This document shows positions 500-51,311 of a DNA stretch of 64,000 bases, piece by piece. How positions within the stretch are numbered: the stretch's first letter is position 1; every line of letters begins with the position of its first letter. This DNA is from Bacteroidota bacterium. Lineage in GTDB: Bacteria; Bacteroidota; Bacteroidia; B-17B0; Aurantibacillaceae. Made by a program: the position numbers and the translations under genes. The notes below the pieces were generated by a model that was not told where the DNA came from, did no database searches, and saw only the letters and a list, made by a program, of their open reading frames with translations. Location: the NCBI GenBank assembly GCA_021156365.1, contig JAJNDK010000006.1:1-64000 (forward strand), written 5' to 3'.

Positions 500-2737
500 A
501 TGAAAAAGCTGGCCATCTTATTGATCATTGCACTGTATGCAAATTTGTCTGTAGCGCAATGGCGCAATACAAGCGGGCCATTCGGAGAGATCCATTGCGT
601 AGAATCCGGCAATGGAAACCTGTTTGTTGGAACAGACAAGGGTCTTTATTTATCTTCCGACAATGGAAACACCTGGACATCTGTAAATACCGGATTGCCG
701 GCTGGGCGTGCGGTTAAAGCAGTAGCAATAAACGGTACTACAATTTTTGCGGGAGTAGACAGCAACGGAGTGTACCGGTCAACGAATAACGGAAGCAGCT
801 GGACCGCGGCAAATGCAGGTTTGACCAATACGCATGCAATCTCTTTTTTGGTTTACGGCTCAACCATATTTGTAGGTACAATTGACGGTGTATTTTCATC
901 CACTAACAATGGAAATTACTGGAACCCTTCAAATACCGGAATGACCTACACTGTTGTTAATTCAATAGTATACAATGGAACCTATATATTTGCGGGAACG
1001 AGCGATGGCGTATACATCTCCTACAACAATGGCAGCAACTGGTATACAGTAAACAATGGGATAACAAACGATCATATTCATTCTTTATCTGTCAGCGGAA
1101 CTAAACTTTTTGCTGCTGCCTATACCTATGGAAGCTCAGGCGGAAGTATGTATGTATCTACGGATAATGGAACCACCTGGAATGACCTGAGTACAGGACT
1201 GGATCAGATGAATGTTTGTGCAGTCATTGAGAGCGGTTCAAATTTGTTCGCAGGGGTCAATAATGATGGTGTAATTATGTCCAGCGATAACGGGAACACC
1301 TGGACGGAGGTAAATACAGGAATGGACAGTCCGGGATTTTCTACAGATATATATACTTTGACCTTAAGTGGTTCTACACTTTACGCAAGTGGTAATGCGG
1401 GCAATGAATATAACTTATTCAAAAGCACCGATAACGGAAGCACCTGGACGGGACTAAGCACCGGGTTAACAAACAGGAGGGCATACGGATTGGCTGGCGA
1501 TGGTTCGAGGATTTTTGCAATTACTGCTCATGACGCCTTGATGTCAACTAACAACGGGAGCACCTGGACCGAGCCAAATACAGGATCGGATAATTTTTTT
1601 AGCAGCATTGCGATAAATGGTCCAACTATTTACGGAGGTCTTAACGACGATGTCGTATTCTCTACCGACAATGGGAGTACCTGGACTGGCATGAATGCAT
1701 TCCTTTCGTATGGTGCAGATGAGATCGCATTTAACGGATCTACTATTTATGTGGTGGACCATATAACCGGCCTGCAGTTTTCCACTGATAACGGACTTAC
1801 CTGGACACCGGCTGATGCTACGGTACCAACTGGTATTTATTCACTTGCCATACAGGACGGAAGCATGTACGCAGGTTCATATGGAGAATTATACATATCA
1901 ATAGATAACGCAAGCACATGGACACTATTAAGTACAGGCATTACAGATGATATTCTTACCTCGCTGGCAATAAGCGGTACCAATATATTTGCATCCACAC
2001 TTAGTCACGGTATATTTTTGTCTACCGATGGCGGTCTTACCTGGGCACCGGCAAATACCGGCTTAACAACAAATGCCATTCACTCCCTTACGATCAGCGG
2101 GACAAACATTTATGCAGGAACCGATTTTGACGGTGTATTTACCCGGCCCTTATCGGAAATGATCAATTGCGTCTCCTTTTACACAACATCGTATGATACC
2201 CTGTCGAATACGTTTACGCTGACAATCGATTCGCTTTCATCCGCTATGGCAGTTGGCTATCATTGGGATTTCGGGGACGGTGCCTCATCAGCTCTTCAGG
2301 CTCCTTCCCATACGTACGCGGTAGATTCATTATACAATGTCTGCATGACAATTTACACATCCTCCGGAGAATCCTGCAGCTATTGCCATGTAATAGGAAT
2401 TGATAGCTTAGGGAATATAATAAGAAACGCGGGTTTTAATCTTGTTGTAAATCCTTTTAATACAACGGGTAGTATTCAAAAAGAGTCAGCTGAACCAGCC
2501 ATCAGGTTTTTCCCAAACCCTTTCTCTTCCCAAACGATAATAGAGACTGACCATTCTTTTAAAGATGCAACCCTTACACTCTACAATTCCCTGGGCCAGC
2601 AGGTGAGAGAGATCAAAAACAGCAGTGGAAAGAAAATTATTTTGCACCGCGAGGATTTAGCGGGCGGAATTTATTTTCTGAAACTTAGCCAGGATAATAA
2701 AATAATCCTGGCAGAGAGAGTATTGATTACAGATTAA
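500..2737 (+). CDS. T9SS-secreted Asp-box beta-propeller protein with PKD domain
   Basis: This 745-residue protein should be exported by its signal peptide (MKKLAILLIIALYANLSVAQ) and delivered to the cell surface by T9SS. The body has 12 repeats of about 42 residues, each with an Asp-box core such as STDNGSTWT followed by a TGL-type turn, as in BNR/sialidase-like or Ycf48-like beta-propellers. A PKD-like domain follows at about 585-640 (HWDFGDG). The last 80 residues are a type A sorting domain (FFPNPF, then LYNSLGQ, ending AERVLITD). No sialidase active-site residues are evident, so binding or adhesion is more likely than catalysis. The gene stands alone, flanked by 30-base direct repeats. 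The start is chosen because the signal peptide follows directly. Confidence 0.85.
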   Translation: MKKLAILLIIALYANLSVAQWRNTSGPFGEIHCVESGNGNLFVGTDKGLYLSSDNGNTWTSVNTGLPAGRAVKAVAINGTTIFAGVDSNGVYRSTNNGSSWTAANAGLTNTHAISFLVYGSTIFVGTIDGVFSSTNNGNYWNPSNTGMTYTVVNSIVYNGTYIFAGTSDGVYISYNNGSNWYTVNNGITNDHIHSLSVSGTKLFAAAYTYGSSGGSMYVSTDNGTTWNDLSTGLDQMNVCAVIESGSNLFAGVNNDGVIMSSDNGNTWTEVNTGMDSPGFSTDIYTLTLSGSTLYASGNAGNEYNLFKSTDNGSTWTGLSTGLTNRRAYGLAGDGSRIFAITAHDALMSTNNGSTWTEPNTGSDNFFSSIAINGPTIYGGLNDDVVFSTDNGSTWTGMNAFLSYGADEIAFNGSTIYVVDHITGLQFSTDNGLTWTPADATVPTGIYSLAIQDGSMYAGSYGELYISIDNASTWTLLSTGITDDILTSLAISGTNIFASTLSHGIFLSTDGGLTWAPANTGLTTNAIHSLTISGTNIYAGTDFDGVFTRPLSEMINCVSFYTTSYDTLSNTFTLTIDSLSSAMAVGYHWDFGDGASSALQAPSHTYAVDSLYNVCMTIYTSSGESCSYCHVIGIDSLGNIIRNAGFNLVVNPFNTTGSIQKESAEPAIRFFPNPFSSQTIIETDHSFKDATLTLYNSLGQQVREIKNSSGKKIILHREDLAGGIYFLKLSQDNKIILAERVLITD

Positions 2738-3528: not shown

Positions 3529-3561
3529 ATAAGTGGTGGGATTTTCCTTTTAAGTGGTTAA
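3529..3561 (-). promoter_or_regulatory. Candidate LytTR-type operator (two 9-mers, 21-base period)
   Basis: On the minus strand ACCACTTAA, a 12-base spacer and ACCACTTAT occur in tandem, exactly 21 bases apart. A 9-base direct repeat with a 12-base spacer is the known geometry of LytTR-domain regulator sites, which place two monomers on one DNA face. The same arrangement occurs at 48728-48760. It lies upstream of the gene at 2811-3473 and overlaps the end of the frameshifted gene. Assignment to a regulator is inference. Confidence 0.4.
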
Positions 3562-4049
3562 CTATCGAAATAAACTGACATAGCCGCGGTGCTTTTCTTT
3601 TTCACCCAGAGAGTTTTTAAACTCGACAAGGTAATAATATACCCCTTCGCTACATGCAATTCCGCCAGTGGTTCTTCCATCCCAGGCTTCCTTTGGTTTT
3701 GAAGAAGTAAACAGCATTGTTCCGTATCGGTTATAGATAGTGCAACTGTACTCTTTGGTGTAACCGTTACTCCTGAAGCATTATAATTTAACTGGAAGAA
3801 ATAAAGATCTCCACCTGAACTTGCCAAATTTACGCTATATGTACCCGAACACATATTATTAATACTGAAAGAGATTCCAGGGCCGTTAGGGCCGTTTGTT
3901 GAGATTGAGTAGAGGCCGCAAGTTCCAATCCGTAAGGTACCGTCACAAGATCCGGTGCCTGCAAAGCCACTTACGTAAAAGTCAGCCGGAGGCTGGGAAA
4001 TTCCTTTTAAGGATAATATGAATAATAAAATAACAAATTTAAGTTTCAT
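3558..4049 (-). pseudogene. Frameshifted T9SS type B sorting-domain protein
   Basis: The open frame gives 163 residues: a signal peptide (MKLKFVILLFILSLKGISQ) and a cysteine-containing domain resembling the body of the protein at 5158-6009 (CDGT-, SGTYSVNL-). From about 3780 to 3562 a different frame encodes a clear gliding-motility-type (type B) sorting domain: SCTIYNRYGTML, then KEAWDGRTTGG, YYYLVEFKN and a final RGYVSLFR, with its own stop at 3562-3564. In the annotated frame this region reads as unrelated residues. A stop in the second frame near 3787 sets the left limit, so the shift lies at about 3760-3787. This is a frameshift mutation, a sequencing error or recoding. The gene is the second of a duplicated cassette, 3 bases behind 4053-5108. 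Confidence 0.75.
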
Positions 4050-4052
4050 TCT

Positions 4053-5108
4053 TTATTTTATAATTATGATTCTTCTAATGGCATGAACTCTACCATTTAC
4101 AAAGAATTTCAAATAATAAATGCCTTCCGTTAACTTTTCAGTGTCTAATTCGCTTTTTGTCTGCTCAATTATATTGGACGCAGATACTTCTCCAAACACA
4201 TTATAAAACTTTACCTCAACAATGTTAGTATGTATGAAGTCTGGAAACTCTATTGTTAATTTATTTTTAGCGGGGTTAGGATACGCGTTAACCGCCTCAT
4301 TATCCCTTATTTTTTCTTTTATCCCAATCGCAGGCACTGTTGCACAAGCCGTATCTATGCAGTATAAAAAAACATCATCCACAAAATAGTAACTTCCGCT
4401 GTCTGACGAAGCACTGTTATAATTGGTCGGAATAATAATGCTGTTTACATCATCCCTGAAATTACCGATTGTAAACCATTTCTCGCCCCCTTGCGCAACA
4501 AAGGTGTCTGCCACCAACACCCAACCAAGTGTATCGGTGAGGTTAAAAGTAGTATCGTTTATGACTTGGGGAGTTTGTTTTATTACCCCCCATTGATACC
4601 AATCACCAAAAAAATAAGAGGAGTCATAGGCAGGTATTGAATCCGTAACAAGCAAGCCAAAATTATTGACCGAAAACCGTTTATAGCTCTCACCTAAATT
4701 AACGTAGCATCCGGCATAGTATTTTTTTCCGGCTTCCAACGGCATTAATAACTGAGTTTGTAAATACTCTCTGTAGTTAAGATTTCTATTAGGTCTATCC
4801 GTAGCACAAATTCCTGCAAAACAATCTCCTGTTCTCGGATATTGGTTGCCACCTGTACAAACCGGATAATTACCATAGAGGGTATTTGAAGGAGTACAAT
4901 AATAATACATGTAGTAATCTGTAGTCCCTTCTCCATTTCCATTCTGCCAGTAATAGAGCCATTGTGGATTGCCAACGCCAACGAACACAGCGGTATCGTA
5001 GCAAGGTTTAAGTCTTTCAAAACCCGAATCAGGAACAATATTGGTATGGGCCTGGGCGTACCCCGCAAAAGAAAAACATACCAATATGGCAATTAAGAGG
5101 CGTTTCAT
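4053..5108 (-). CDS. T9SS-secreted jelly-roll-like protein, cassette copy 2
   Basis: This 351-residue protein has a signal peptide (MKRLLIAILVCFSFAGYAQA), a body starting VPDSGFE that resembles a carbohydrate-binding-type beta sandwich, and a type A sorting domain (AYPNPAKNKLTIEF, EGIYYLKF, RRIIIIK). The body is a close paralogue of 6016-7074, with long shared stretches such as RPNRNLNYREYLQTQL and YFVDDVFLYCID. The two diverge abruptly after IGIKE, where the sorting domain begins. A hairpin directly before the start is also shared with the paralogue. A binding or adhesive role is likely; no catalytic motif is visible. Confidence 0.8.
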   Translation of the reverse strand: MKRLLIAILVCFSFAGYAQAHTNIVPDSGFERLKPCYDTAVFVGVGNPQWLYYWQNGNGEGTTDYYMYYYCTPSNTLYGNYPVCTGGNQYPRTGDCFAGICATDRPNRNLNYREYLQTQLLMPLEAGKKYYAGCYVNLGESYKRFSVNNFGLLVTDSIPAYDSSYFFGDWYQWGVIKQTPQVINDTTFNLTDTLGWVLVADTFVAQGGEKWFTIGNFRDDVNSIIIPTNYNSASSDSGSYYFVDDVFLYCIDTACATVPAIGIKEKIRDNEAVNAYPNPAKNKLTIEFPDFIHTNIVEVKFYNVFGEVSASNIIEQTKSELDTEKLTEGIYYLKFFVNGRVHAIRRIIIIK

Positions 5109-5117
5109 AACAAAAAG

Positions 5118-5144
5118 AACCTATCCCTAAGATAGGGAAAGGTT
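5118..5144 (-). terminator. Hairpin between cassettes (terminator or leader)
   Basis: AACCTATCCCTA pairs with TAGGGAAAGGTT (two imperfect positions) and on the minus strand is followed by CTTTTTG. It sits after the gene at 5158-6009 and only 9 bases before the start at 5108. The same element precedes 6016-7074. Confidence 0.6.
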
Positions 5145-5157
5145 ATAGATCTCCTGT

Positions 5158-6009
5158 TTATTTAATGATTATAAGCCGTCGGGTTGAAATAGGAAGACCC
5201 TGCGAAATGAGTGCGCAGTAGTAGATCCCATTTTCAAGTTCTTCAAACTTAAAAGTCGATGTTTGGGATTCGACAATAGTTTTTAAGATGAGTTTGCCTT
5301 CCGCTGAATAAATTAGTAATTCGGTTAATTGACTATTTTGACTCCATAATGGGCCGCAGTCTATTGTTATACCTCCATTTGAAGGATTTGGATTTATTTT
5401 CCAATTCGTTCCTAAAGTAGAATCATCCACGCCTGTAGCAGCATTGCCCGGCATAGTAAAACTTGTGGAATAATACGGGCAGCCACACGAAGACATAGGA
5501 GTAATAGTGTAAGTTGCTTGCGCAAGATTGATGATAGTATCGGTGTAATAAGTTTGAGTTGTTGATCCGGTACAATTCCCAATAAACCCTCCTCCAACAA
5601 TATACTGATCAACCGGGCATAATGAAAGTGAATCCAGCGCATGTACAACCATTGAGCCATCGCAACAAATACTCCAACCACTCATGCAACTGGCATTATT
5701 TACAACCTGGGTATAACAATTAAAAAATGCATTAAAATTGGGCAGTACCCCTATATCAGATGCAATACACCCAAGGTTATCCATAATCGTAACGGAAACA
5801 GTATCTCCGAAAGGTATTGAATCAGACATACTTGTAGTATCGCCGTTGTACCACAGATATGTAAATGGGGGTTGGCCGGAAGCGTTGACGGCAACTATGT
5901 TGTTATTGATTTGAAAACAATCTGTTTGGCTTAATGTGATCTGAACTGAACATTGCGAACGAGTAGACTTATATGAAATAAGGAGTACAAAAAATAAAAA
6001 TTGTTTCAT
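5158..6009 (-). CDS. T9SS-secreted protein with SprB-like module, cassette copy 1 second gene
   Basis: This 283-residue exported protein has a signal peptide, then a module with the SprB-repeat style (FTYLWYNGDTTSMSDS, VTIMDNLGC), then a cysteine-rich stretch (SGWSICCDGSM, SSCGCPYYS), then a type A sorting domain (INPNPSNGGITIDC, ENGIYYCAL, RRLIIIK). It follows 6016-7074 by 6 bases, so the two are surely co-transcribed. The cysteine-rich middle resembles the frameshifted gene at 3558-4049, which occupies the same place in the other cassette. Likely a surface filament or adhesin part; no enzyme motif. Confidence 0.75.
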   Translation of the reverse strand: MKQFLFFVLLISYKSTRSQCSVQITLSQTDCFQINNNIVAVNASGQPPFTYLWYNGDTTSMSDSIPFGDTVSVTIMDNLGCIASDIGVLPNFNAFFNCYTQVVNNASCMSGWSICCDGSMVVHALDSLSLCPVDQYIVGGGFIGNCTGSTTQTYYTDTIINLAQATYTITPMSSCGCPYYSTSFTMPGNAATGVDDSTLGTNWKINPNPSNGGITIDCGPLWSQNSQLTELLIYSAEGKLILKTIVESQTSTFKFEELENGIYYCALISQGLPISTRRLIIIK

Positions 6010-6015
6010 GGTCGA

Positions 6016-7074
6016 TTATTTAAGTATAATTAGTTTCTGAACAGATCGGACAAATCCATTCATTATTACTTCAACAAAATAGGCTCCGTTTGGAAGATCA
6101 GCAATTGAGGTAATACCTTTTCCAGAATGCAGCAATAATTCATCACTTTTTCTGAGGCGACCGGCCAGGTCATAAATTCTTAGTAGCGCTGATTTCTGAT
6201 CGTTAAATGCATCGATTTCTACAGTAATTTCATGTATGGCCGGATTGGGGTAAAGGCCAAAATTGTGCCGATATGTTTGTGTTTCTTTAATGCCGATAAC
6301 TGGAACAGTTGCACAAGATGTATCTATGCAGTATAAAAACACATCATCTACAAAATAATAGCTGGCACTGTCAGATGAAACACTATTGTAATTGGTAGGA
6401 ACAAAAACGCTGTGCGCATCGTTTCTGAAATTTCCAATTGTCAACCACTTTTCGCCGCCTTGCGCTATAAAAGTATCAGCTACCAATATCCAACCAAGTG
6501 TATCCATAAGATTAATAGTGGTATCGTTCATTACCTGAGCTTCCTGACGAATTGGGCCCCACTGCATCCATGATCCAAAGAAGTAAGACGAATCATAAGC
6601 GGGTACACTGTCTGTAAAAAGCAAACCAAAACTATTGACCGAAAACCGTTTGTAACTCTCCCCTAAACTAACATGACATCCGGCATAGTATTTTTTTCCT
6701 GCTTCAAGTGGTATGAGAAGTTGTGTTTGTAAATATTCTCTATAGTTTAGATTTCTATTAGGCCTATCTATGGCACAAATACCCGCGAACACACCACCTG
6801 TACGCGGATATTGAGCTCCACCTATACACGATGGGTAGTTTTCCATATACGCGTTAAATGGGGGGCCGAAATAACATCCATGGTATAAATCGGTACTACC
6901 TTTATTACCACTTTGCCAATATGTAGAAGCTGAATCAATTTGACCTAAACCATAAGTTGTACCGCATCCGGGATTTAAAATTTCAAAGCTGCTATCGGGA
7001 ACAATATTAGTGTACGCCTGGGAATACCCGGCAATGGAAGTACTTACCAATATGGCAATTAAGAGGTGTTTCAT
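6016..7074 (-). CDS. T9SS-secreted jelly-roll-like protein, cassette copy 1
   Basis: This 352-residue paralogue of 4053-5108 has a signal peptide (MKHLLIAILVSTSIAGYSQA), the same VPDSSFE start of the body, the same RPNRNLNYREYLQTQL and GGEKWLTIGNFR blocks, and a type A sorting domain (LYPNPAIHEITVEI, LRIYDLAGRL, VQKLIILK). The sorting domain is not the one of the paralogue, whereas the body is. It begins 50 bases after the end of the subtilase gene, separated by a hairpin that may terminate or attenuate read-through. Probably a surface-exposed binding protein. Confidence 0.8.
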   Translation of the reverse strand: MKHLLIAILVSTSIAGYSQAYTNIVPDSSFEILNPGCGTTYGLGQIDSASTYWQSGNKGSTDLYHGCYFGPPFNAYMENYPSCIGGAQYPRTGGVFAGICAIDRPNRNLNYREYLQTQLLIPLEAGKKYYAGCHVSLGESYKRFSVNSFGLLFTDSVPAYDSSYFFGSWMQWGPIRQEAQVMNDTTINLMDTLGWILVADTFIAQGGEKWLTIGNFRNDAHSVFVPTNYNSVSSDSASYYFVDDVFLYCIDTSCATVPVIGIKETQTYRHNFGLYPNPAIHEITVEIDAFNDQKSALLRIYDLAGRLRKSDELLLHSGKGITSIADLPNGAYFVEVIMNGFVRSVQKLIILK

Positions 7075-7083
7075 GATTAAAAG

Positions 7084-7111
7084 AACCTATCCCTAAAGAT
7101 AGGGATAGGTT
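7084..7111 (-). terminator. Perfect hairpin after the subtilase gene
   Basis: AACCTATCCCTA and TAGGGATAGGTT form a perfect 12-pair stem with a 4-base loop, followed on the minus strand by CTTTTAAT. It ends the subtilase transcript and lies 9 bases before the next start codon, the same position as in the second cassette. Confidence 0.7.
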
Positions 7112-7124
7112 CTGAATTTTACAA

Positions 7125-10100
7125 TTATTTCATTATCACAAGACGTTCGTTGGTTAACACTACACCGTTTTTACTGAATTTGATAATGTACACCCCGTTT
7201 TGAAGGTCTTTTACAGACAATTGTGCAGTATTGGAGTATACATCCAGATCGGACTTAACAAGCAGCTTACCATCCATAGCATATACACTAATAGCGGCAT
7301 TTTCGCCCGTTTTTACAGCGTCAAATTCAACTGTAAGGTTCCCCGAAGTAGGATTAGGATACAAGTTGAAGCTTACAGGCTGAGTGTTCCCTTCTTCTAT
7401 ACGTGCAATTCGGGCTTCCGCCGAAGTATTGCAGGTATGGTTAAAAGGCACATAACCCTCTGAGATTTTGTTAACCAATGCTCTTGCTTTCAGTACAGCA
7501 GGACCGGATGCTAATTCACATTCAGAAGCAATTGCATAAAGGGCATTCATTTCATTTCCAGAGTATACATAGGTTGTATTAATCAATCTATTTAATTCCA
7601 ACCGGTACACATCTGCTAAATATTGCTCCATGTTATTTTCAGGACTTACAGTATTTAGCATCGAATTAGCATCTGTATATAACCCATTTTCCATGTATTG
7701 TTCAGCTTGTGTGAGCAATCCAATGGGTGCATTTATCGTCGTCGAGTAGAAAGCCTGTAAATTGGCATTGTCAGTTAACAGATCGGAATTGTGGTGGATC
7801 TGCTCAAATGCCCATTTGTTGTTTACCCATAGGCGCTGGCTATTATATTCCAGGCTTACAGTTGTATCGTGAACCAGGCTTTCAAGAACCCTCTGCATTT
7901 CTTCATTTCCCGAACCTTCTACTTCATTTTCGCTTTCCATAGATTGATTTTCGTTATAGCCTCCGGAAGCAAGCATTTGCCCTTCTTCTTCTTCGCATCC
8001 TTCGCAATCTATTGGAGGGAAATTGTAATTGCCTCCGCAGGTTGAGGCGCAATTTAAGCAACTCGGAGGATTAATAGAAGTTGTTATGAAACCATTACCA
8101 GCAGCTGCACCTGTGGTGTATACAGCACTGCCAACTGCGAAGTCGTGATTTGTTGGTGCATATGTATATCCTGTACCTGCACCGGGGCCCGTGTAAACAT
8201 TAAATTTAGCCATTGTATTCACATTAGCTCCATTAGCGTTATAGGTTTGGAAAGTAGTAACAAATGAAGCCGCTGTACCCCATCTGTTTTTAGTACCCGC
8301 CGCTTGGGTATTAAATGCAGCCCCGCTATTCATGTATAGGCCATATCGTCCTGATGTCATCACGTTTCGCTGAATAAGTGTAGCGGTTGGATTGGTTCCC
8401 TGAAAAACCATGCAGGCACCTAAATAACGAATGTCATTCGCATCAATGGTATTGTTATTGCCAGCTGCTGTGCTATTGTTTATATAAATACCCGTAAGAG
8501 CTAAATTCGCAACCTGCGTGTTTCCGCTGCTTGTACGGATATAATTATTGAACCGATTAAACGAATTTCTGCAATTATCCAAGCGGATCACGTCAAAGGT
8601 CGCACCGCCTGCCATAGTTCCGCCAGTCGCACGATACCTAAGAGAAAGTTCATTGTTGCAGGCAATGTTTAAGCCTGACTGAACGCCCGAACAATGGATT
8701 ACTTTTTCTTCAATATTTGTAATTGTATTCCTTTTGATCTCGATAGATTCGGAAGCCATGCAGGTGGTACAGCTTGTTACGTCTTCCATAAAGACACCTT
8801 TGTTGCAATACGCATTCGTAGTGCCGTTCGCAGTAATAGTATTATCGTTTATATATATTCCTGTTCCCGTATAGGTAGAGTTACGTAAGAAGTGAATACC
8901 CAATGCACAGTTACTAATACTGTTGCTATCAATGTTCACCACCACACCTGCGCCACCTACCGGCTGCATATAGATTCCATACTGCCCCGTACGATTACCT
9001 GTTGGGAAGTTGGTGTATGTGTCGGTGAAGGAATTGTTGAAGGTGTTTTTATGGATATATACAACTTTTGTGTTGTTGCCGATATGAATGCCTCTCAGCA
9101 GGTCTTTGAATACACATCCTTCATTCGCAGCAATTCCAGTTTGAGAACAACCTACCGATATGGAAGGATCACGTAAACTGGCAATACCAACTCCTATAAC
9201 GGCTGTGCTGTTTCCTTTGCTATATTGGAACTGACAGTTTTTAACGGCAAAATAACTGTCTCCCGCAGAAATACCAAGATCGAGATTATCGAAAAGATTT
9301 ACTTTCCCTGTGCCGTGAGAATTGGTTGTTCCGGCTTCACCTATAATAAATGGATAGGTAGGACTTCCTACGCGATGTATACGAATACCACGTAATGAAC
9401 GTACTCCTGCATTGGTGGTAGACAAGGAGTATACGTTATTATACACGCTGTCTTTTATGACGGCAAAGTTTGCCTGAGCCGTAGCAACATTAGTTACTGT
9501 AACAAGTCCCGTACTGCCTATGTTGCGACAGGTAAATACACAATTATCAATAATATTATTGGTAAGTGAAGGTTGATAATTGGTAGTGTTTTGAGTGCCT
9601 AATGCTATTGTTACACCCGAAGTGTTCCGGTTAAAGATGGTTTGTGTGATCTGTATATCCGGAATAGGTGCCGCTGCAACGTACCCTTGTACGCTAACAG
9701 CGTCTACAGCATCTTCAATCCGGGAACCTGCGCCAATAACAAGCTTACCACCATTTTCCACATAAATTCCGTCCCACATACCAGTGCCGCAAGTTGAACA
9801 GCTATGAAGATAAGAAGCGGCAATAGTTAAAGTTGCAGTGCTCGCAACTGTTACTTTGACACCGGGAGCAATACGAACGTCGTTACATCCAATAACGTTA
9901 TTGCCGGTTGTGAAGGTTACATTTCCCATAACGGCAATAGAGCTGTTTATTGGTAAACCTGTTCCGAAGTTAGTTTGTACAACTGAATACACTGTGTCCC
10001 GCGGTACTTTGCCCGTGGCCGCAAAACACGTGTTTGCCGCTACGGTAATTGTTGAAGTAGCAGGCGCATTACAACCGGATGCAGTACCGGTTACTGTATA

Positions 10101-13100
10101 GGTAGTGGTAACGCTTGGGGTAGCTGTAACGCTTGCGCCGTTAATTGTATTCAATCCAGCTGAAGGCGACCACGTATAGGTTGTAGCTCCACTTGCTGTT
10201 ACATTAAGCGGTGTCCCAACACAATAAGTTGTGTTGGTAGGTGTTACGGATACAGTTGGAGTGGTATTAATCGTTATCGTACTTGTAGCCTGTGCAGTAC
10301 ATCCGGCAGCGTTAGATCCTGTAACAGTAATGGTTGTTGTCGTTGGTGGTGTTGCTGTAACAGTTGCACCCGTTGGAGAGCTTAAACTGCCTGACGGTGT
10401 CCAGGTATATCCTCCTGTAGATCCACTTCCGGTAAGTCCAACACTATTTCCACTGCACATTGTATAAGTAGTTGGGCTAACACCGACTATTGGAACCGTA
10501 TATGCGGTTACCGTTCTTATTTGTTGTGCTTGACAGCCCGCCGCACTTTGTCCGTAGAGTGTATAGGTAGTATTTGTTGTTGGAGAAACTGAAACTGTAT
10601 TGGTATTTACGCCACCGGCATTAGGGCTCCAGGTGTAGGTAGATGCCCCGCCTCCCGTAAGTGTTATTGAAGAACCTATACATACAGTAGGGGTTGTAGG
10701 TGTGATAGTAATAGTTGGAAGCGGATTAACCGTAACCGTAACAACGGCAGTATCCATACAACCGGCTTGTGTGCCTGTAACGGTGTACGTTCTCGTCGAA
10801 GGAGGATTTGCGGTAACGACACTTCCCGTTGATGCACTCAATCCTATAGGCGATACCCATGTGTAAGTAGTTGCGCCGCTCGCTGTTAAAACTACTCCCG
10901 GCCCACCCTGACAGATAGAAGCAGAAGTTGGAGCTACTGTAACAGTTGGTGTATTCACCGTGACTGTGGCCGTTGCCCAGGACTTACAGCCATTTGCTAA
11001 TACGTTTTCTACAGTATAAACAGTAGTTACCGTAGGTGCAACGTATTGCGCGGACTGATTGAAAGGCATTAAATTTCCATTTGCATACCATTGGTACGGA
11101 GAAGTACCGCCTGTTGTTGACAGTAGAACACCCCAACCAGGGCAGATAGTAGTGCTTGCAGGGCTTAATGTCATAACCGGGCCTCCTGAAACTGTTACCT
11201 TAACGGAATCAAATGTAGTAGCGCAGCCGCCATTGGTAACTTCAAGAACATAAGTAGTAGTTGTGGTTGGTGTCGCTATTGGCATGGCTACATTAGTAGC
11301 GGTAAGTCCGGCGGAAGGAGACCAAAGATAAGAAGGTCCGCCCGATCCGCTTAGCGTAACACTTTGACCATAACAGATAGCTGTATCAACTCCGGCAAAT
11401 GCCGCTGCGTCTGAAGCATTATTTCTACGTAATGAAATATCATCCAAAGCAATATCATACTGCGCAGAATGGAAATTACGAACTTGCCTGATCTGCACAA
11501 TTACCCACCCTGTATAGGAGGGATTGTTGAACAAGTAACTATTTTGTTCCCAATATCCGCCATATATTCCTTGCATAACTTTTATCGTATCGAAAAGAAC
11601 ATTGTTTAAGCTGTCCAGTATTCGGGTTTCTAAATGCACCTCCGAAGCATTTGTATAATTTTGATGCGTAAAATAATCCAGGTTATAGTTGTGGCCGGCA
11701 GTAATAACCGGAGTACTTTGCTCCCAAACCACGTTTTGAAATGTAGTGTTATTGTACATAGGCGTAAGGAATGGAGTGTTTTTTCCGCCGGGGGCTGTAG
11801 CCTGTGTAGAATGCGTCGGGCCATCATAAGCAAGTGACATATGTTTATGATAATTTGTACTATTGCCAGAGAGCATTGTTCCTACATAGGCAGGAAAGGA
11901 TGCACAGATATTCGTTGGATAAGTATTAACGCCGTAGTAACCCTGGGAAGTTGTTGTACAACTATAAATATTATCGCTTGAAAAGCCCGTATTCCCGTTT
12001 TCAAAATCTCCATTGGTTACAAGATTTTGGCAGCACTCAACAATTTGAGTGGTGTCCCTTCCAACATTGGTAGCTGTACAACCTGTTGCATCCGTTACAC
12101 TTGTCAGCGTGTAGACCGGATAGTTAGGATCAGCTACGGCGTAATAAATTGCTGTAGAGGTATTGGACGTATCAGTAAATGTAGTGTATACATTACTTAT
12201 TGTGTATTCAAATGGCGGAACGCCGCTTGTAAAATTTAATATAAAATTCTGAGGTGATCCGCTGCATACCCTGCCCGATGCCATTGAAATTATATTGGCT
12301 TCTGGTCTACTGATATTTATATAGTCTGGTTTAACGATTGTAACCGTTCCCGTAGTTGTTGTTGCTGTTAAAGTGGCACTTAGAACAGTTGGCGTAGCTA
12401 CAGAAATAATAATATTTTGTGAAGAAGAACTACCCGAAACGTAAGTAACCGCAGAGCTGAAATTCCAATTCCATGCAGTAACAGTTACACCGGGGCCAGC
12501 GAATGCGTTAAGCGAAATATCCGATCCCGGACAAACGCTTGCCGCACTTGCAGAAAAATTAGCGATAAAAGAGTTATCCGCAATTAATCCAGCTGCGTAC
12601 ATATCAATAACACCCGTACCCAGTTGCCCCGTATATGTTGGATTCACCGGGTAAACGTCCCTTGCTGTACTCAAAACAATATTCTTTATTTGAGCGGCAG
12701 TTAATGTATTGTCAATTCCGTAAATGTAAGCACATAAACTGGCTACCATTGGAGTAGCCATAGATGTGCCGCTTTTATATGTATAGTAGCCTCCTGCAAT
12801 TGGAGAGATTTCCGTATTATCTGTGCTATATATGTTTGATCCCGGGCCCATAACGTCTACCCAGGCACCATAATTTGAAAATACCGATTTGTGATCTTCT
12901 TCGTTCGTAGATCCTACACAAATAATATTATTGGCGTATGCTGGATTTTGGTTATAAGCGGCAGGAAAGGCTAACGTAGAATCAGTAGTATTTGAATTTC
13001 CGGCAGCACAAACAAAAAGCCTTCCATTTCCAACTGCCGTAGCAATAGCGTTTTCAAGTGAAAGATTAGAAAAACCACCCAATGACATACTAATAATGTT

Positions 13101-13886
13101 TGCCCCGTTTGCATCTGCATACATAACAGCTTGAATTATTGCCACATTACTTAAACTATTATAATTTACTGTCAGATCAGGTGCGACTTTAATAGGGATT
13201 ATTTTTAAGTTCGTATTACGGCCAGCTATTGAAGCAACACCCGTAGCATTATGCGTGTTCGCCCCTACAAGTCCTGCCACGTGCGTTCCATGTGAAAGTG
13301 TGGTAGGCCCAACTGTATTTGCATCAGTATCGGCCTGATCGCTTGCAAGAATAAAACGCCCAGTTAAGTCAGGATGGTTCAGGTCCATTTCATTATCAAT
13401 AACTGCTACCCTCACAGAATTGGTAGAAGCTATATCCCAACCATATTCGGCATTTACTTTTTTCAAATGCCAGTTTTTGTTGTTGAAAGTACTTAAAGCG
13501 GATTCGCTGTCATTTGGAACGAAAGCCAGTCTGTAGTAATAAACTTTGTCCGCATCTTCAATGTAGGCCAATGCCATCAAGTCAGTAATAAAGAATTGTA
13601 CTGAATCAATATTGGAGAACTCAAAGAGATAGGTTTTCTGTGTCCAGGGCGCAGCGGTATAAACTGCGAACGGCCTGGAGATCTTTGTTAAACCATATTT
13701 ACTCCAAAAGGGTACGAGATCATTGTGGAGGGTAGAAGTATCACCATTAAAATCGGCGAAGACTTCACTTGATGGATTGGTGATTTTGACAAGTAATTGC
13801 CCATCGACGGCATTAGTATCAATGGTTTGTGCTTTTGAATATGCAAAACAACATAATACAAAGAAAAGGAATAGTACTTTTTTCAT
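7125..13886 (-). CDS. Giant T9SS-secreted subtilisin-family (S8) protease/adhesin
   Basis: This 2253-residue protein opens with a signal peptide (MKKVLFLFFVLCCFAYSKAQ). The S8 protease domain spans about 140-435 with Asp164 (VRVAVIDN), His199 (SHGTHVAG), oxyanion Asn297 (AAGNSN) and Ser375 (SGTSMATP), so it should be active. After PKD/Ig-like sequence, a jelly-roll-like domain starts near 625 (NLVTNGDFENG). About 6 Ig-like repeats follow (about 815-1300), then a long right-handed beta-helix region of glycine/asparagine-rich repeats (about 1330-1900), an acidic linker (DCEGCEEEEG), and a type A sorting domain (LYPNPTSGNLTVEF to ERLVIMK). It heads the minus-strand cargo run. Likely a surface-anchored protease acting on proteins or matrix. 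Confidence 0.9.
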   Translation of the reverse strand: MKKVLFLFFVLCCFAYSKAQTIDTNAVDGQLLVKITNPSSEVFADFNGDTSTLHNDLVPFWSKYGLTKISRPFAVYTAAPWTQKTYLFEFSNIDSVQFFITDLMALAYIEDADKVYYYRLAFVPNDSESALSTFNNKNWHLKKVNAEYGWDIASTNSVRVAVIDNEMDLNHPDLTGRFILASDQADTDANTVGPTTLSHGTHVAGLVGANTHNATGVASIAGRNTNLKIIPIKVAPDLTVNYNSLSNVAIIQAVMYADANGANIISMSLGGFSNLSLENAIATAVGNGRLFVCAAGNSNTTDSTLAFPAAYNQNPAYANNIICVGSTNEEDHKSVFSNYGAWVDVMGPGSNIYSTDNTEISPIAGGYYTYKSGTSMATPMVASLCAYIYGIDNTLTAAQIKNIVLSTARDVYPVNPTYTGQLGTGVIDMYAAGLIADNSFIANFSASAASVCPGSDISLNAFAGPGVTVTAWNWNFSSAVTYVSGSSSSQNIIISVATPTVLSATLTATTTTGTVTIVKPDYINISRPEANIISMASGRVCSGSPQNFILNFTSGVPPFEYTISNVYTTFTDTSNTSTAIYYAVADPNYPVYTLTSVTDATGCTATNVGRDTTQIVECCQNLVTNGDFENGNTGFSSDNIYSCTTTSQGYYGVNTYPTNICASFPAYVGTMLSGNSTNYHKHMSLAYDGPTHSTQATAPGGKNTPFLTPMYNNTTFQNVVWEQSTPVITAGHNYNLDYFTHQNYTNASEVHLETRILDSLNNVLFDTIKVMQGIYGGYWEQNSYLFNNPSYTGWVIVQIRQVRNFHSAQYDIALDDISLRRNNASDAAAFAGVDTAICYGQSVTLSGSGGPSYLWSPSAGLTATNVAMPIATPTTTTTYVLEVTNGGCATTFDSVKVTVSGGPVMTLSPASTTICPGWGVLLSTTGGTSPYQWYANGNLMPFNQSAQYVAPTVTTVYTVENVLANGCKSWATATVTVNTPTVTVAPTSASICQGGPGVVLTASGATTYTWVSPIGLSASTGSVVTANPPSTRTYTVTGTQAGCMDTAVVTVTVNPLPTITITPTTPTVCIGSSITLTGGGASTYTWSPNAGGVNTNTVSVSPTTNTTYTLYGQSAAGCQAQQIRTVTAYTVPIVGVSPTTYTMCSGNSVGLTGSGSTGGYTWTPSGSLSSPTGATVTATPPTTTTITVTGSNAAGCTAQATSTITINTTPTVSVTPTNTTYCVGTPLNVTASGATTYTWSPSAGLNTINGASVTATPSVTTTYTVTGTASGCNAPATSTITVAANTCFAATGKVPRDTVYSVVQTNFGTGLPINSSIAVMGNVTFTTGNNVIGCNDVRIAPGVKVTVASTATLTIAASYLHSCSTCGTGMWDGIYVENGGKLVIGAGSRIEDAVDAVSVQGYVAAAPIPDIQITQTIFNRNTSGVTIALGTQNTTNYQPSLTNNIIDNCVFTCRNIGSTGLVTVTNVATAQANFAVIKDSVYNNVYSLSTTNAGVRSLRGIRIHRVGSPTYPFIIGEAGTTNSHGTGKVNLFDNLDLGISAGDSYFAVKNCQFQYSKGNSTAVIGVGIASLRDPSISVGCSQTGIAANEGCVFKDLLRGIHIGNNTKVVYIHKNTFNNSFTDTYTNFPTGNRTGQYGIYMQPVGGAGVVVNIDSNSISNCALGIHFLRNSTYTGTGIYINDNTITANGTTNAYCNKGVFMEDVTSCTTCMASESIEIKRNTITNIEEKVIHCSGVQSGLNIACNNELSLRYRATGGTMAGGATFDVIRLDNCRNSFNRFNNYIRTSSGNTQVANLALTGIYINNSTAAGNNNTIDANDIRYLGACMVFQGTNPTATLIQRNVMTSGRYGLYMNSGAAFNTQAAGTKNRWGTAASFVTTFQTYNANGANVNTMAKFNVYTGPGAGTGYTYAPTNHDFAVGSAVYTTGAAAGNGFITTSINPPSCLNCASTCGGNYNFPPIDCEGCEEEEGQMLASGGYNENQSMESENEVEGSGNEEMQRVLESLVHDTTVSLEYNSQRLWVNNKWAFEQIHHNSDLLTDNANLQAFYSTTINAPIGLLTQAEQYMENGLYTDANSMLNTVSPENNMEQYLADVYRLELNRLINTTYVYSGNEMNALYAIASECELASGPAVLKARALVNKISEGYVPFNHTCNTSAEARIARIEEGNTQPVSFNLYPNPTSGNLTVEFDAVKTGENAAISVYAMDGKLLVKSDLDVYSNTAQLSVKDLQNGVYIIKFSKNGVVLTNERLVIMK

Positions 13887-13948
13887 AGGTTTTTGGCTTT
13901 AGTGATAAGGGTGTTTAATTTCTGCCGCAAGGTATGGATTCTAATTTA

Positions 13949-13980
13949 CTTAAAAAGGGCGGAATTCCGCCCTTTTTAAG
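13949..13980. terminator. 32-base perfect palindrome, bidirectional terminator
   Basis: The stretch CTTAAAAAGGGCGG and its exact reverse complement meet around AATT, so both strands give a GC stem flanked by A and T runs. It lies 63 bases upstream of the subtilase start and would insulate that gene from the tRNA region. Confidence 0.6.
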
Positions 13981-14127
13981 ATTTAATGATTTCTTATTGC
14001 ACCAAACTTGTTTCAGGCACTGAATAAAGTTTAGAATGTCATGAGCGATTGACCGAATGCCATTTTTCAACTAATTGAGACGGAATTATATATCTGTGGA
14101 CTAATAGTAGACTATCATAAAAGCAAA

Positions 14128-14158
14128 AAACACCTATTTAATTAATAAATAGGTGTTT
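14128..14158 (-). terminator. Hairpin terminator behind the tRNA remnant
   Basis: AAACACCTATTTA and TAAATAGGTGTTT form a perfect 13-pair stem with loop ATTAA. On the minus strand it is followed by TTTGCTTTT. Its place relative to the tRNA remnant mirrors that of the hairpin behind the intact tRNA. Confidence 0.6.
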
Positions 14159-14171
14159 ACGATTTTTATTG

Positions 14172-14244
14172 TGGAGAATACCGGTCCCGATAGCTATCGG
14201 GACGAACCGGTCACCTCTTCACTGCCAGCGAAGCGCTCTAGCCA
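14172..14244 (-). pseudogene. Decayed tRNA-Ala copy interrupted by a palindrome
   Basis: The plus strand shows the 3' acceptor and T-stem piece of the intact tRNA-Ala (TGGAGAATACCGG), then an 18-base palindrome in place of ATT of the T-loop, then 42 bases identical to the intact gene through the anticodon arm to the D-arm. It breaks off at GCCA, where a second, half palindrome (14245-14258) begins. The 5' acceptor strand is missing, so it cannot fold as a tRNA. Confidence 0.85.
14185..14202. repeat. 18-base palindromic element inside the tRNA remnant
   Basis: TCCCGATAGCTATCGGGA is a perfect palindrome. A 14-base partial copy lies at 14245-14258 and another 16-base core match lies at 35494-35511. 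Confidence 0.8.
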
Positions 14245-14258
14245 TCCCGATAGCTATC
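14245..14258. repeat. Partial copy of the palindromic element
   Basis: TCCCGATAGCTATC matches the first 14 bases of the palindrome at 14185-14202 and replaces the 5' part of the decayed tRNA. Confidence 0.7.
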
Positions 14259-14330
14259 AAAATCCACTTCGTTGTTTTTACTTTTCATGCATTTATGCAA
14301 TTGGGTACAATTGCAACATTCCTGAAAAGC

Positions 14331-14359
14331 AAAAATCCCCGCTATTGCGGGGAGATTTT
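14331..14359 (-). terminator. Terminator of tRNA-Ala
   Basis: CCCCGC and GCGGGG pair around TATT, extended by AAAAT/ATTTT. On the minus strand the stem is followed by ATTTTTGCTTTT. It lies 11 bases downstream of the tRNA 3' end. Confidence 0.75.
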
Positions 14360-14369
14360 GATCAATCCG

Positions 14370-14443
14370 TGGAGAATACCGGATTCGAACCGGTCACCTC
14401 TTCACTGCCAGCGAAGCGCTCTAGCCAAATGAGCTAATTCCCC
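14370..14443 (-). tRNA. tRNA-Ala (anticodon GGC)
   Basis: The 74-base gene folds as a standard cloverleaf: acceptor GGGGAAT/ATTCTCC, D-arm GCTC/GAGC, anticodon stem CTTCG/TGAAG with loop CTGGCAG (anticodon GGC), T-arm ACCGG-TTCGAAT-CCGGT, discriminator A. CCA is not encoded. It reads alanine codon GCC. It lies 23 bases downstream of the infB stop on the same strand, with its own terminator behind it. Confidence 0.95.
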
Positions 14444-14466
14444 AATCTTATGGTGTGCAAATATAA

Positions 14467-17331
14467 TTAAAGTTTCGCTTTCACCTCTACCATTTCGTAT
14501 CCTTCGATGATATCACCTACCTGGATATCGTTGAAATTATCGATGTTCAGACCGCACTCATAACCTGCTGCCACTTCTTTCACATCGTCTTTGAAACGTT
14601 TCAGTGAACCCAAGCCGCCGGTGTGAATAACGATACCATCGCGGATGATCCGCACTTTGGTATTCCTGTTCACTTTTCCGTCCAGTACGTAGCAACCTGC
14701 AATGGTTCCCACTTTCGTGATCTTGAACACTTCGCGGATCTCGATGTTGCAGGTGATCTTCTCTTCGAATTCCGGAGCCAGCATACCTTCCATCGCCGCT
14801 TTGATCTCGTTGATAGCGTCGTAGATGATCGAATACAAACGTACATCGATCTCTTCCGTTTCTGCTAACTTACGTGCATTGGTGGTAGGACGAACCTGGA
14901 ACCCGACAATGATCGCGTTGGATGCAGATGCTAACATCACATCACTTTCGCTGATCGCACCTACTGATTTCAGGATGATATTGATCTGAACTTTTTCCGT
15001 AGACAGCTTCAGTAAGGAATCCGATAAGGCTTCCACCGAACCATCCACATCACCTTTTACGATCACGTTCAGCTCTTTGAAATCACCGATCGCCAATCGA
15101 CGGCCGATCTCATCAAGCGTAATATGTTTACGGGCACGCATACCCTGCTCACGCTGCAATTGCAGACGTTTGGTAGCTAGTTCCCTTGCTTCTCTTTCAT
15201 CAGCCAATACGTAGAATTTATCACCTGCCTGCGGAGCTCCGTTCAAACCCAATACCATTACCGGTATCGCCGGTCCTGCGGATTGGATCTTCGCGCCTCT
15301 TTCGTTGTTCAATGCTTTCACACGTCCGTGGAAAGATCCGGCAAGGATCACATCACCTACTTTTAGCGTTCCGGCCGATACAAGCACTGTTGCTTCGTAA
15401 CCACGGCCTTTATCCAGCTTGGTTTCGATAACGGTACCCACAGCGCGTTTTTTAGGATTCGCTTTCAGATCCAGCATTTCTGCTTCCAGCAATACTTTTT
15501 CCAACAGGAGATCCATGTTCTTACCCTGTTTGGCAGAAACCTCCTGGCACTGGAACTTACCGCCCCATTCTTCCACCAGTATGTTCATACCTGCCAACGC
15601 TTCGCGGATCTTCTCCGGGTTCGCTCCAGGCTTATCGATCTTGTTGATCGCGAAAACCATTGGTACACCTGCTGCCTGTGCATGGGTGATCGCCTCACGT
15701 GTCTGTGGCATGATGCTGTCATCGGCCGCTATCACAATAATAGCAATGTCAGTAACCTGTGCTCCACGTGCACGCATGGCGGTAAACGCCTCGTGACCCG
15801 GAGTATCGAGGAAGGTAATATGTTTTCCGTTCTCTAATGTAACGTTGTAAGCCCCGATATGCTGCGTGATACCACCGGCCTCACCGGCAATAACGTTCGC
15901 TTTACGGATAAAATCGAGGAGTGAGGTTTTACCGTGATCTACGTGACCCATAACTGTAACAACAGGCGGGCGTGAGATCAGGTCTTCCACTTTATCTTCT
16001 TCTTCGATGATGGCTTCCTGTGCTTCTACGGTAATGAATTCCACTTTAAACCCAAACTCTTCCGCTACGATGGAGATCGTTTCCGCATCCAGTCGCTGGT
16101 TGATACTTACGAATAAGCCCAACTGCATACAAGTGGAAATTACTTTGGTAACAGGAACATTCATCATCTGAGAAAGCTGGCTGGCAGAAATGAACTCGGT
16201 CACTTTCAGTACACTCTTGTCCGCTTCAGCCTGATTATGCTCTTCCTGCATTTTCTCGCGGATCTCTTCGCGTTTTTCTTTCCTGTACTTGGAGGCTTTC
16301 GATTTGGAACCTGTTTGACTTAAACGTGCAAGCGTTTCCTTGATCTGTGCCTGGATCTCTTCATCCGTAAGTGCCGGCTTGGCCACTCTGCTTTGTCCGG
16401 GTCCTTTACGATTGTCGCCGGGTCTGCTGAATCTGTCTTTTGCTGCAGTTGCTACCTGTTTCCCGACATTTTTAATGGTTTCCTGGGAAACACTTCCTTT
16501 TTTGATCCGTTTTCTTTTTTTCTTTTCAAAGGATCCGTCGGAAGAAGACACCGGTTTTTTCTCTACCGGGAGAATGATATTCCCTAAGATCTTCGGACCT
16601 TCCAGCTTCTGGAATTTGGTGGCGAGGAAATCCTCTTTCGGCTCTTCTCTTTCTTTTTCTTTCGGTGTTTCTACTATCTCTTTCGGAACTTCTTTTACCG
16701 GTTCTTCTTTTACTTCTTCCTCTTCTTTTTTAGATTTCGCGGTTTTCTTTTTCGCTGAAGTCTTTTCTTCTTCTTTTGCTTTCGCTTCGTCGTCCTTTTC
16801 TTTCTTCGTTTTCTTGTCCGGTTTGGTTTTTTGGTTCAATGTGCTTAAGTCCATTTTACCCAATACTTTCGGCCCGACAGTAGCAGTCACTTCAGGAGTA
16901 ACAACAACCTCTTCCGGTTCTTTTTCTTTCTCTACAACCGGTTCTTTTTTAGTTGTCAGCTCTTCGATCCGCTCGCGCTCTTTTTTCTTAATGCCTTCAA
17001 GCACTTTATCGGTCGCAGAAAGGTCTTTGATGATGATGCTATCATCAGCGTCCTCTTTTTTCTTCTGCGTAACCAGCTTGGTGTTATCCAACGCAATTGT
17101 TTCTTTTTTCTCACGAATGATCTGTCCCACCTGGGCAGCTTCTTCCTTCGCGGATTTATCACCCTGGTACTCCTTCAGCAAAAGTTTATACTCCGCCTCC
17201 CCAATTTTGCCATTGGGATCCGGCTTGATCTTGTGTCCTTTTGCGGAAAGGAAGTCAACAATCGTACTTAACGATAGGTTAAATTCTTTTGCGACTTTGC
17301 TTAAGCGATATGTTGGTTGATTTTCTGACAT
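14467..17331 (-). CDS. infB: Translation initiation factor IF-2
   Basis: IF-2 is the GTPase that brings fMet-tRNA to the 30S subunit. The 954-residue protein has an IF2_N motif at the start ([13 protein letters not shown]), a long charged linker rich in lysine and glutamate (about 60-370), a G domain with G1 GHVDHGKTS at 462-470, DTPGH and NKID motifs, and the C-terminal IF-2 domains II-IV ending [12 protein letters not shown]. The long charged N-terminal region is usual in Bacteroidota. It is the last gene of rimP-nusA-infB, 87 bases behind nusA, an arrangement widely conserved in bacteria. Confidence 0.97.
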
Positions 17332-51153: not shown

Positions 51154-51190
51154 AGATTATCAGGTCACTGATACATTAACATAATTCAAC

Positions 51191-51232
51191 AAAGCCCCCC
51201 ACAATTAAATTTAATTTATGGGGGGCTTTTTG
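51191..51232 (+). terminator. Terminator between the T9SS paralogues
   Basis: AAAGCCCCCCA pairs with TGGGGGGCTTT around a 17-base loop and is followed by T residues. Confidence 0.8.
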
Positions 51233-51260
51233 CTAAATCGCGTACAAAATCGTAACTTAG
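51229..51260 (+). promoter_or_regulatory. Possible promoter of the second T9SS paralogue
   Basis: TTTG at 51229-51232, inside the preceding T-tract, and TAACTTAG at 51253-51260 (one mismatch to TAnnTTTG), 20 bases apart, 52 bases before the start. Confidence 0.4.
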
Positions 51261-51311
51261 CAAAAAAGAAAAAACGAAATTTCTTTAATTAATTGTTTAA
51301 ATAAATTCATC

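What the first reader, a model, noticed from the sequence alone, without database searches (positions are those of the whole stretch)
3558..7074. Duplicated two-gene T9SS cassette with exchanged sorting domains
4053-5108 and 6016-7074 share a closely similar body but differ abruptly after IGIKE, where the sorting domain starts. Their partner genes (3558-4049 and 5158-6009) share a cysteine-rich body but carry type B and type A sorting signals respectively. This suggests recombination that swaps the secretion tag while keeping the cargo.
Basis: partly seen in the sequence, partly recalled or inferred. Interest (0 to 1): 0.65.

Follow-up and report, generated by a model that had tools for sequence, protein, structure and literature searches.

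The report
Twin secreted proteins with unlike tags
Two neighbouring bacterial genes encode near-twin secreted proteins whose export tags are no more alike than two random tags of the same genome; in related genomes such tags appear to have been swapped between proteins, so the tag seems to evolve as a replaceable part.

Summary
Partly confirmed. b1 (4053-5108) and b2 (6016-7074) are tandem paralogues: 74% identical up to IGIKE, 24% after it. The break is sharp (95% range 261-263 aligned residues; lnL gain 33.1, permutation maximum 9.6). The two-gene cassette is not real: the partner genes share no body. The type B signal of p1 lies in another reading frame, so p1 is broken or misread. b1, b2 and p2 all carry type A signals, so no class of tag was exchanged.

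The b1/b2 tags are 28% identical, the median for 160 type A tags of this genome (46th percentile). Other tandem paralogues with cargo at least 60% identical keep tags 46-91% alike; b1/b2 has the most extreme tag/cargo distance ratio of 27 pairs (5.1). No donor was found. A tree test does not reject the b1 and b2 tags as sisters (p 0.10 and 0.41), so replacement here is likely but not proven against fast divergence.

In related genomes, replacement in the same protein family is supported: tag trees reject the cargo grouping at p about 1e-6 in two loci. Best reading: cargo duplication with tag replacement, domain shuffling in type IX secretion cargo.

The parts
6283..7074 (-). b2 cargo part: signal-peptide-like start and body up to IGIKE
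   Evidence: 74% identical to b1 up to the change point; no Pfam family for the body
6016..6282 (-). b2 tail: linker, type A sorting domain, stop
   Evidence: PF18962 3.3e-9, TIGR04183 9.6e-9; best-scoring relative in the genome is the sorting domain of the upstream protease gene, 53.9 bits against 36 for the next
4314..5108 (-). b1 cargo part up to IGIKE
4053..4313 (-). b1 tail: linker, type A sorting domain, stop
   Evidence: PF18962 4.3e-13; 28% identical to b2's, the genome median for any two type A tags; best match elsewhere 38-39%
7075..7112 (-). hairpin followed by a T run directly before the b2 start codon
   Evidence: folds at -22.5 kcal/mol, z -7.3; terminator-like; the core occurs only twice in the genome
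5109..5145 (-). same hairpin directly before the b1 start codon: 5' edge of the duplicated unit
5158..6009 (-). p2: repeat-like body with a type A sorting domain (about 5161-5397)
   Evidence: PF18962 1.5e-8; not related to p1
3558..4049 (-). p1: ORF that runs out of frame before its sorting domain
   Evidence: no T9SS domain in frame
3562..3759 (-). type B (CHU_C) sorting half-domain in another frame than p1
   Evidence: PF13585 1.2e-12, model positions 27-86; TIGR04131 33.3 bits, just below its cut-off of 35
7125..13886 (-). S: 2253-aa subtilase with Ig-like domains and a type A sorting domain (7134-7364), upstream neighbour
   Evidence: PF00082 2.1e-44, PF18962 6.1e-13

Best explanation
b1 and b2 arose by tandem duplication of one T9SS cargo gene; the recognisable unit runs from a hairpin just before the start codon to IGIKE at the end of the cargo domain. 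In at least one copy the sorting domain after IGIKE was replaced by another, non-orthologous type A domain, either by exchange after the duplication or because only the cargo part was copied and joined to a resident tag. Both products still have what the T9SS route needs (hydrophobic start, type A domain; PorV in the genome), so both are probably exported and processed on the PorV route with the same cargo. Shown: paralogy, sharp edge, tags at background similarity, outlier status, tag/cargo tree conflict in related loci. Inferred: that replacement rather than divergence produced the b1/b2 difference, the direction, and any effect on destination.
For: Change point exactly at IGIKE, 0.74 to 0.24, gain 33.1 against a permutation maximum of 9.6. 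b1/b2 tag identity 0.276 equals the median of all pairs of 160 tags. Among 27 same-strand neighbouring paralogue pairs, b1/b2 has the highest tag/cargo distance ratio, 5.08; the next is 2.5. The other five pairs with cargo at least 0.60 identical have tags 0.91, 0.89, 0.67, 0.84 and 0.46. Same body family elsewhere: three G071 copies have bodies 0.71-0.77 and tags 0.87-0.90 identical, two G073 copies 0.66 and 0.96, yet G071 against G073 is body up to 0.78 and tag 0.25-0.33. Body tree groups G071+G073 (100/99) and the G084 pair (100/100); the tag tree splits both across a 98/99 branch, and the AU test rejects the cargo grouping, p=9.5e-7 and 5.6e-7. The change point in those pairs lies at the cargo/tag junction. 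The same body also occurs with type B and OmpA ends. PorV present, E=1.1e-67.
Against: The AU test does not reject b1 and b2 tags as sisters (p=0.099 among 25 tags, 0.41 among 30). No donor tag above 45% identity in the held part of the genome. Type A tags are generally below 40% identical (PMC12618676), and the presumed orthologues G052/G054 have body 0.80 and tag 0.61, so tags can outpace cargo without exchange. Several tandem pairs with cargo 0.52-0.59 also have tags of 0.32-0.42.
Confidence: 0.66

Rival explanations
1. No exchange: the whole gene was duplicated with its tag, and the two tags diverged to background because type A tags are recognised by fold and a few motifs, while the cargo stayed under strong constraint.
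For: AU test does not reject sister tags; published type A tags share a fold at under 40% identity; orthologues G052/G054 show tags diverging faster than bodies.
Against: Other paralogue pairs of the genome with the same cargo identity keep tags at 46-91%, and tags often diverge more slowly than cargo (ratios 0.12-1.0); the edge is a step, not a slope; trees support true replacement in sister loci.
Confidence: 0.27
2. A narrower form of the best explanation: the tag of b2 came from the adjacent upstream subtilase gene S, by gene conversion or unequal crossing-over between neighbouring tags.
For: b2 and S tags are reciprocal best by score, 53.9 bits against 36 for the next; in G084 the body gene next to the large upstream gene groups with that gene's tag (52% identity, 95/80); all three G071 copies have tags in the same clade as the upstream genes' tags, up to 74% identical to the G073 one.
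Against: Only 35% identity between b2 and S tags; the tree leaves it unresolved (AU p 0.28 and 0.46 for holding them together); genome-wide, neighbouring unrelated cargo do not have more similar tags (p=0.29).
Confidence: 0.25
3. Duplicated two-gene cassette with exchange of type A and type B signals in the partner genes.
For: Gene order alternates b, p, b, p, with gaps of 3-6 bases between b and p.
Against: p1 and p2 bodies do not align; p1 has no sorting domain in frame; b1 and b2 tags are both type A.
Confidence: 0.03

Closest known systems
T9SS type A sorting domain (PF18962, TIGR04183)
   Same: b1, b2, p2 and S all end in it above the curated cut-offs
   Different: Nothing unusual in the domains themselves; the unusual point is two near-twin cargoes with unrelated versions
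Domain rearrangement and allelic exchange in Porphyromonas gingivalis surface proteins (PMC5266723)
   Same: Modular T9SS-exported surface proteins recombine domain by domain
   Different: There cargo modules change and the C-terminal domain is described as conserved; here the cargo is kept and the C-terminal tag differs
Engineered swaps of T9SS C-terminal domains in Flavobacterium johnsoniae (PMC12618676)
   Same: A tag works on a foreign cargo and can change its destination
   Different: Those swaps were made in the laboratory and exchanged type A and type B; here the change is natural and stays within type A

Membership tests
T9SS type A cargo (b1, b2) | C-terminal match to PF18962/TIGR04183 above cut-off | tested here: met
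   49.8 and 37.4 bits against 27; 32.8 and 35.1 bits against 23
T9SS type A cargo (b1, b2) | Domain at the very C-terminus, ending in the conserved lysine-containing motif | tested here: met
   Matches end 2 residues before the stop; proteins end IIIK and IILK
T9SS type A cargo (b1, b2) | N-terminal Sec signal peptide | tested here: inconclusive
   Hydrophobic starts MKRLLIAILVCFSFAGYAQA and MKHLLIAILVSTSIAGYSQA seen by eye; no predictor run
T9SS type A cargo (b1, b2) | Genome encodes the T9SS shuttle PorV | tested here: met
   PF19572, E=1.1e-67, C8:111536-112264
T9SS type A cargo (b1, b2) | Secretion and tag cleavage | not testable with these tools
   needs experiment
T9SS type B cargo (p1) | In-frame C-terminal CHU_C domain | tested here: not met
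   Half-domain only, in another frame
Duplicated two-gene cassette | Both genes of the pair paralogous | tested here: not met
   b genes yes, p genes no
Tag replacement between cargoes | Tag phylogeny conflicts with cargo phylogeny | tested here: inconclusive
   Congruence rejected in G071/G073 and G084 (p about 1e-6), not for b1/b2 (p 0.10, 0.41)
Tag replacement between cargoes | Identifiable donor tag | tested here: not met
   No tag above 45% identity to either in the held part of the genome; a donor outside this genome or since diverged is not excluded

The most novel reading that the evidence does not exclude
In this bacterial family, T9SS sorting domains evolve as exchangeable cassettes uncoupled from their cargo: within a locus they are homogenised among copies or replaced from a neighbouring cargo gene, so that near-identical surface proteins are re-addressed by changing tag subtype within type A.
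Probability: 0.3. Interest if true: 0.6.

Novelty: new variant of a known kind. Interest (0 to 1): 0.4.

Why it matters
Laboratory swaps show that T9SS tags carry both an export signal and a destination signal (PMC12618676). Natural tag replacements on near-identical cargo would be ready-made experiments for asking whether subtypes within type A differ in destination or processing, and they mean that tag similarity cannot be used to infer cargo orthology. I found no paper in the searched library that reports natural tag replacement, but that library misses most subscription journals.

Tried and rejected
Two-gene cassette: rejected. Type A/B exchange between the p genes: rejected. Donor in the genome: none. 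General homogenisation of tags among neighbouring unrelated cargo: not significant, p=0.29, 47 near pairs. Search scores that rank the b1 and b2 tags fairly close to each other include the shared IGIKE stretch in the query, so I rely on the tag-only comparisons. Identity of the body domain: AlphaFold model useless (mean pLDDT 34.5, three sequences), no solved relative except for the tag, weak CBM_4_9 hints in 3 of 26 relatives (best E 0.0029). Close orthologues in the genome collection: only one distant locus, L039. Literature searches for tag shuffling gave nothing specific.

Full report
What is there. On the minus strand the order is S (7125-13886, 2253 aa, subtilase with Ig-like domains and a type A sorting domain), b2 (7074-6016), p2 (6009-5158), b1 (5108-4053), p1 (4049-3558). 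b1 and b2 share their whole cargo part. A maximum-likelihood change point on the alignment falls after IGIKE with a 95% range of three residues; identity is 0.74 before and 0.24 after, and the gain of 33.1 log units compares with at most 9.6 in 1000 permutations. The local DNA alignment also stops there. At the 5' side homology starts at a hairpin with a T run placed directly before each start codon; the core pattern occurs only at these two places in the genome. Inside the cargo, residues 31-88 are also less similar (38-47%), so the body is not uniform, but the drop at the tag is far larger. Half of the identical residues use different codons (107 of 214 codons identical), so the duplication is old.

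What is not there. The partner genes are not recognisable paralogues, so there is no duplicated two-gene cassette. p2 has a type A domain. p1 has none in frame; a type B half-domain, positions 27-86 of the model, lies in another frame, so p1 is a broken gene or a sequence error. b1 and b2 are both type A, so no exchange between classes took place between them.

Is a low tag identity unusual? I collected 160 type A sorting domains from about 100 stretches of the same genome. Any two are on average 28% identical; b1 and b2 are 28% (46th percentile). Of 27 neighbouring same-strand paralogue pairs with collinear cargo, b1/b2 has the largest ratio of tag distance to cargo distance, 5.1; the range of the rest is 0.12 to 2.5. 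The five other pairs with cargo identity of at least 0.60 have tags 0.91, 0.89, 0.67, 0.84 and 0.46 identical. One of these controls is in the same window (49015-51153 and 51312-53447: cargo 0.71, tag 0.91). The pairs are not independent, and the ratio uses a simple Kimura distance. Below 0.60 cargo identity, several pairs also have tags near background, so decoupling of tag and cargo is frequent here and b1/b2 is its extreme.

Relatives. The body occurs in 68 of 87 genomes of the family searched, ending in type A, type B or OmpA domains. Two groups show replacement by trees. Bodies of three G071 copies and two G073 copies form one clade (100/99), and the two G084 copies another (100/100). In the tag tree the G073 copies fall with G084_bB on one side of a 98/99 branch, while the G071 copies fall on the other side with tags of the large upstream genes, and G084_bA pairs with its own upstream gene (95/80). 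Forcing the cargo grouping on the tags is rejected, p=9.5e-7 and 5.6e-7. The groups were defined by cargo, not by the tag tree, but the loci were picked after seeing the identity table, so the p values are somewhat optimistic. For b1/b2 the same test is inconclusive (p=0.10 and 0.41).

A large gene with a type A tag lies upstream of body genes in the window, G071, G073 and G084, and the body gene next to it has a tag most like the upstream one in G084 and, weakly (35%), in the window. This suggests a neighbouring donor, but a genome-wide test of neighbouring unrelated cargo shows no such trend (p=0.29).

Mechanism. Two routes fit: a whole-gene duplication followed by tag replacement, or a duplication of the cargo part alone that was joined in frame to a resident tag. 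I cannot separate them. The published work shows that tags work on foreign cargo and can alter destination (PMC12618676), that type A tags use PorV and are thought to be recognised mostly by fold and a few motifs (PMC12618676, PMC10202324), and PorV is in this genome; so both proteins are probably still exported. Whether they go to different places is unknown.

Comparison and verdict. This is domain shuffling in a known class of modular secreted proteins. Natural replacement of the tag with the cargo kept is, as far as the searched open library shows, not described, but the search was limited. The local pair is a likely but unproven case; the stronger evidence lies in the related loci.

Noticed in passing
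window 5109-5145 and 7075-7112: A strong hairpin with a T run sits immediately before both b start codons; only these two copies exist in the genome. The first 15 codons of b1 and b2 agree at 13 of 15 third positions, against about half elsewhere, so the 5' end is unusually conserved.
   Followed up: partly
window 500-2737: The sorting domain of this 745-aa gene is 58% identical to that of a gene at C12:46459 with unrelated cargo, a possible shared tag across cargoes.
   Followed up: no
L040 and L041 (G073, G071): Body genes in matching loci with 62-78% identical bodies and 25-33% identical tags, while copies within each genome have tags 87-96% identical: homogenisation within and replacement between genomes.
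   Followed up: yes
L042 (G084) 11625-15501: Tandem body genes with tags of two different subtypes, one like the upstream gene's tag and one like that of G073.
   Followed up: yes
window 49015-53447: Tandem T9SS cargo pair with 69-71% cargo and 91% tag identity, a control for the finding.
   Followed up: yes
G000 C8:94576-112264: The PorV gene lies next to a cluster of several type A cargo genes on the same contig as the window.
   Followed up: no
L025 2383-3318 and L032 1282-2217: A type B body gene is 99-100% identical between two genomes of one genus counted as different species (G075, G080): recent transfer or a binning artefact.
   Followed up: no
window 3558-4049: p1 runs out of frame before its type B sorting domain.
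   Followed up: partly
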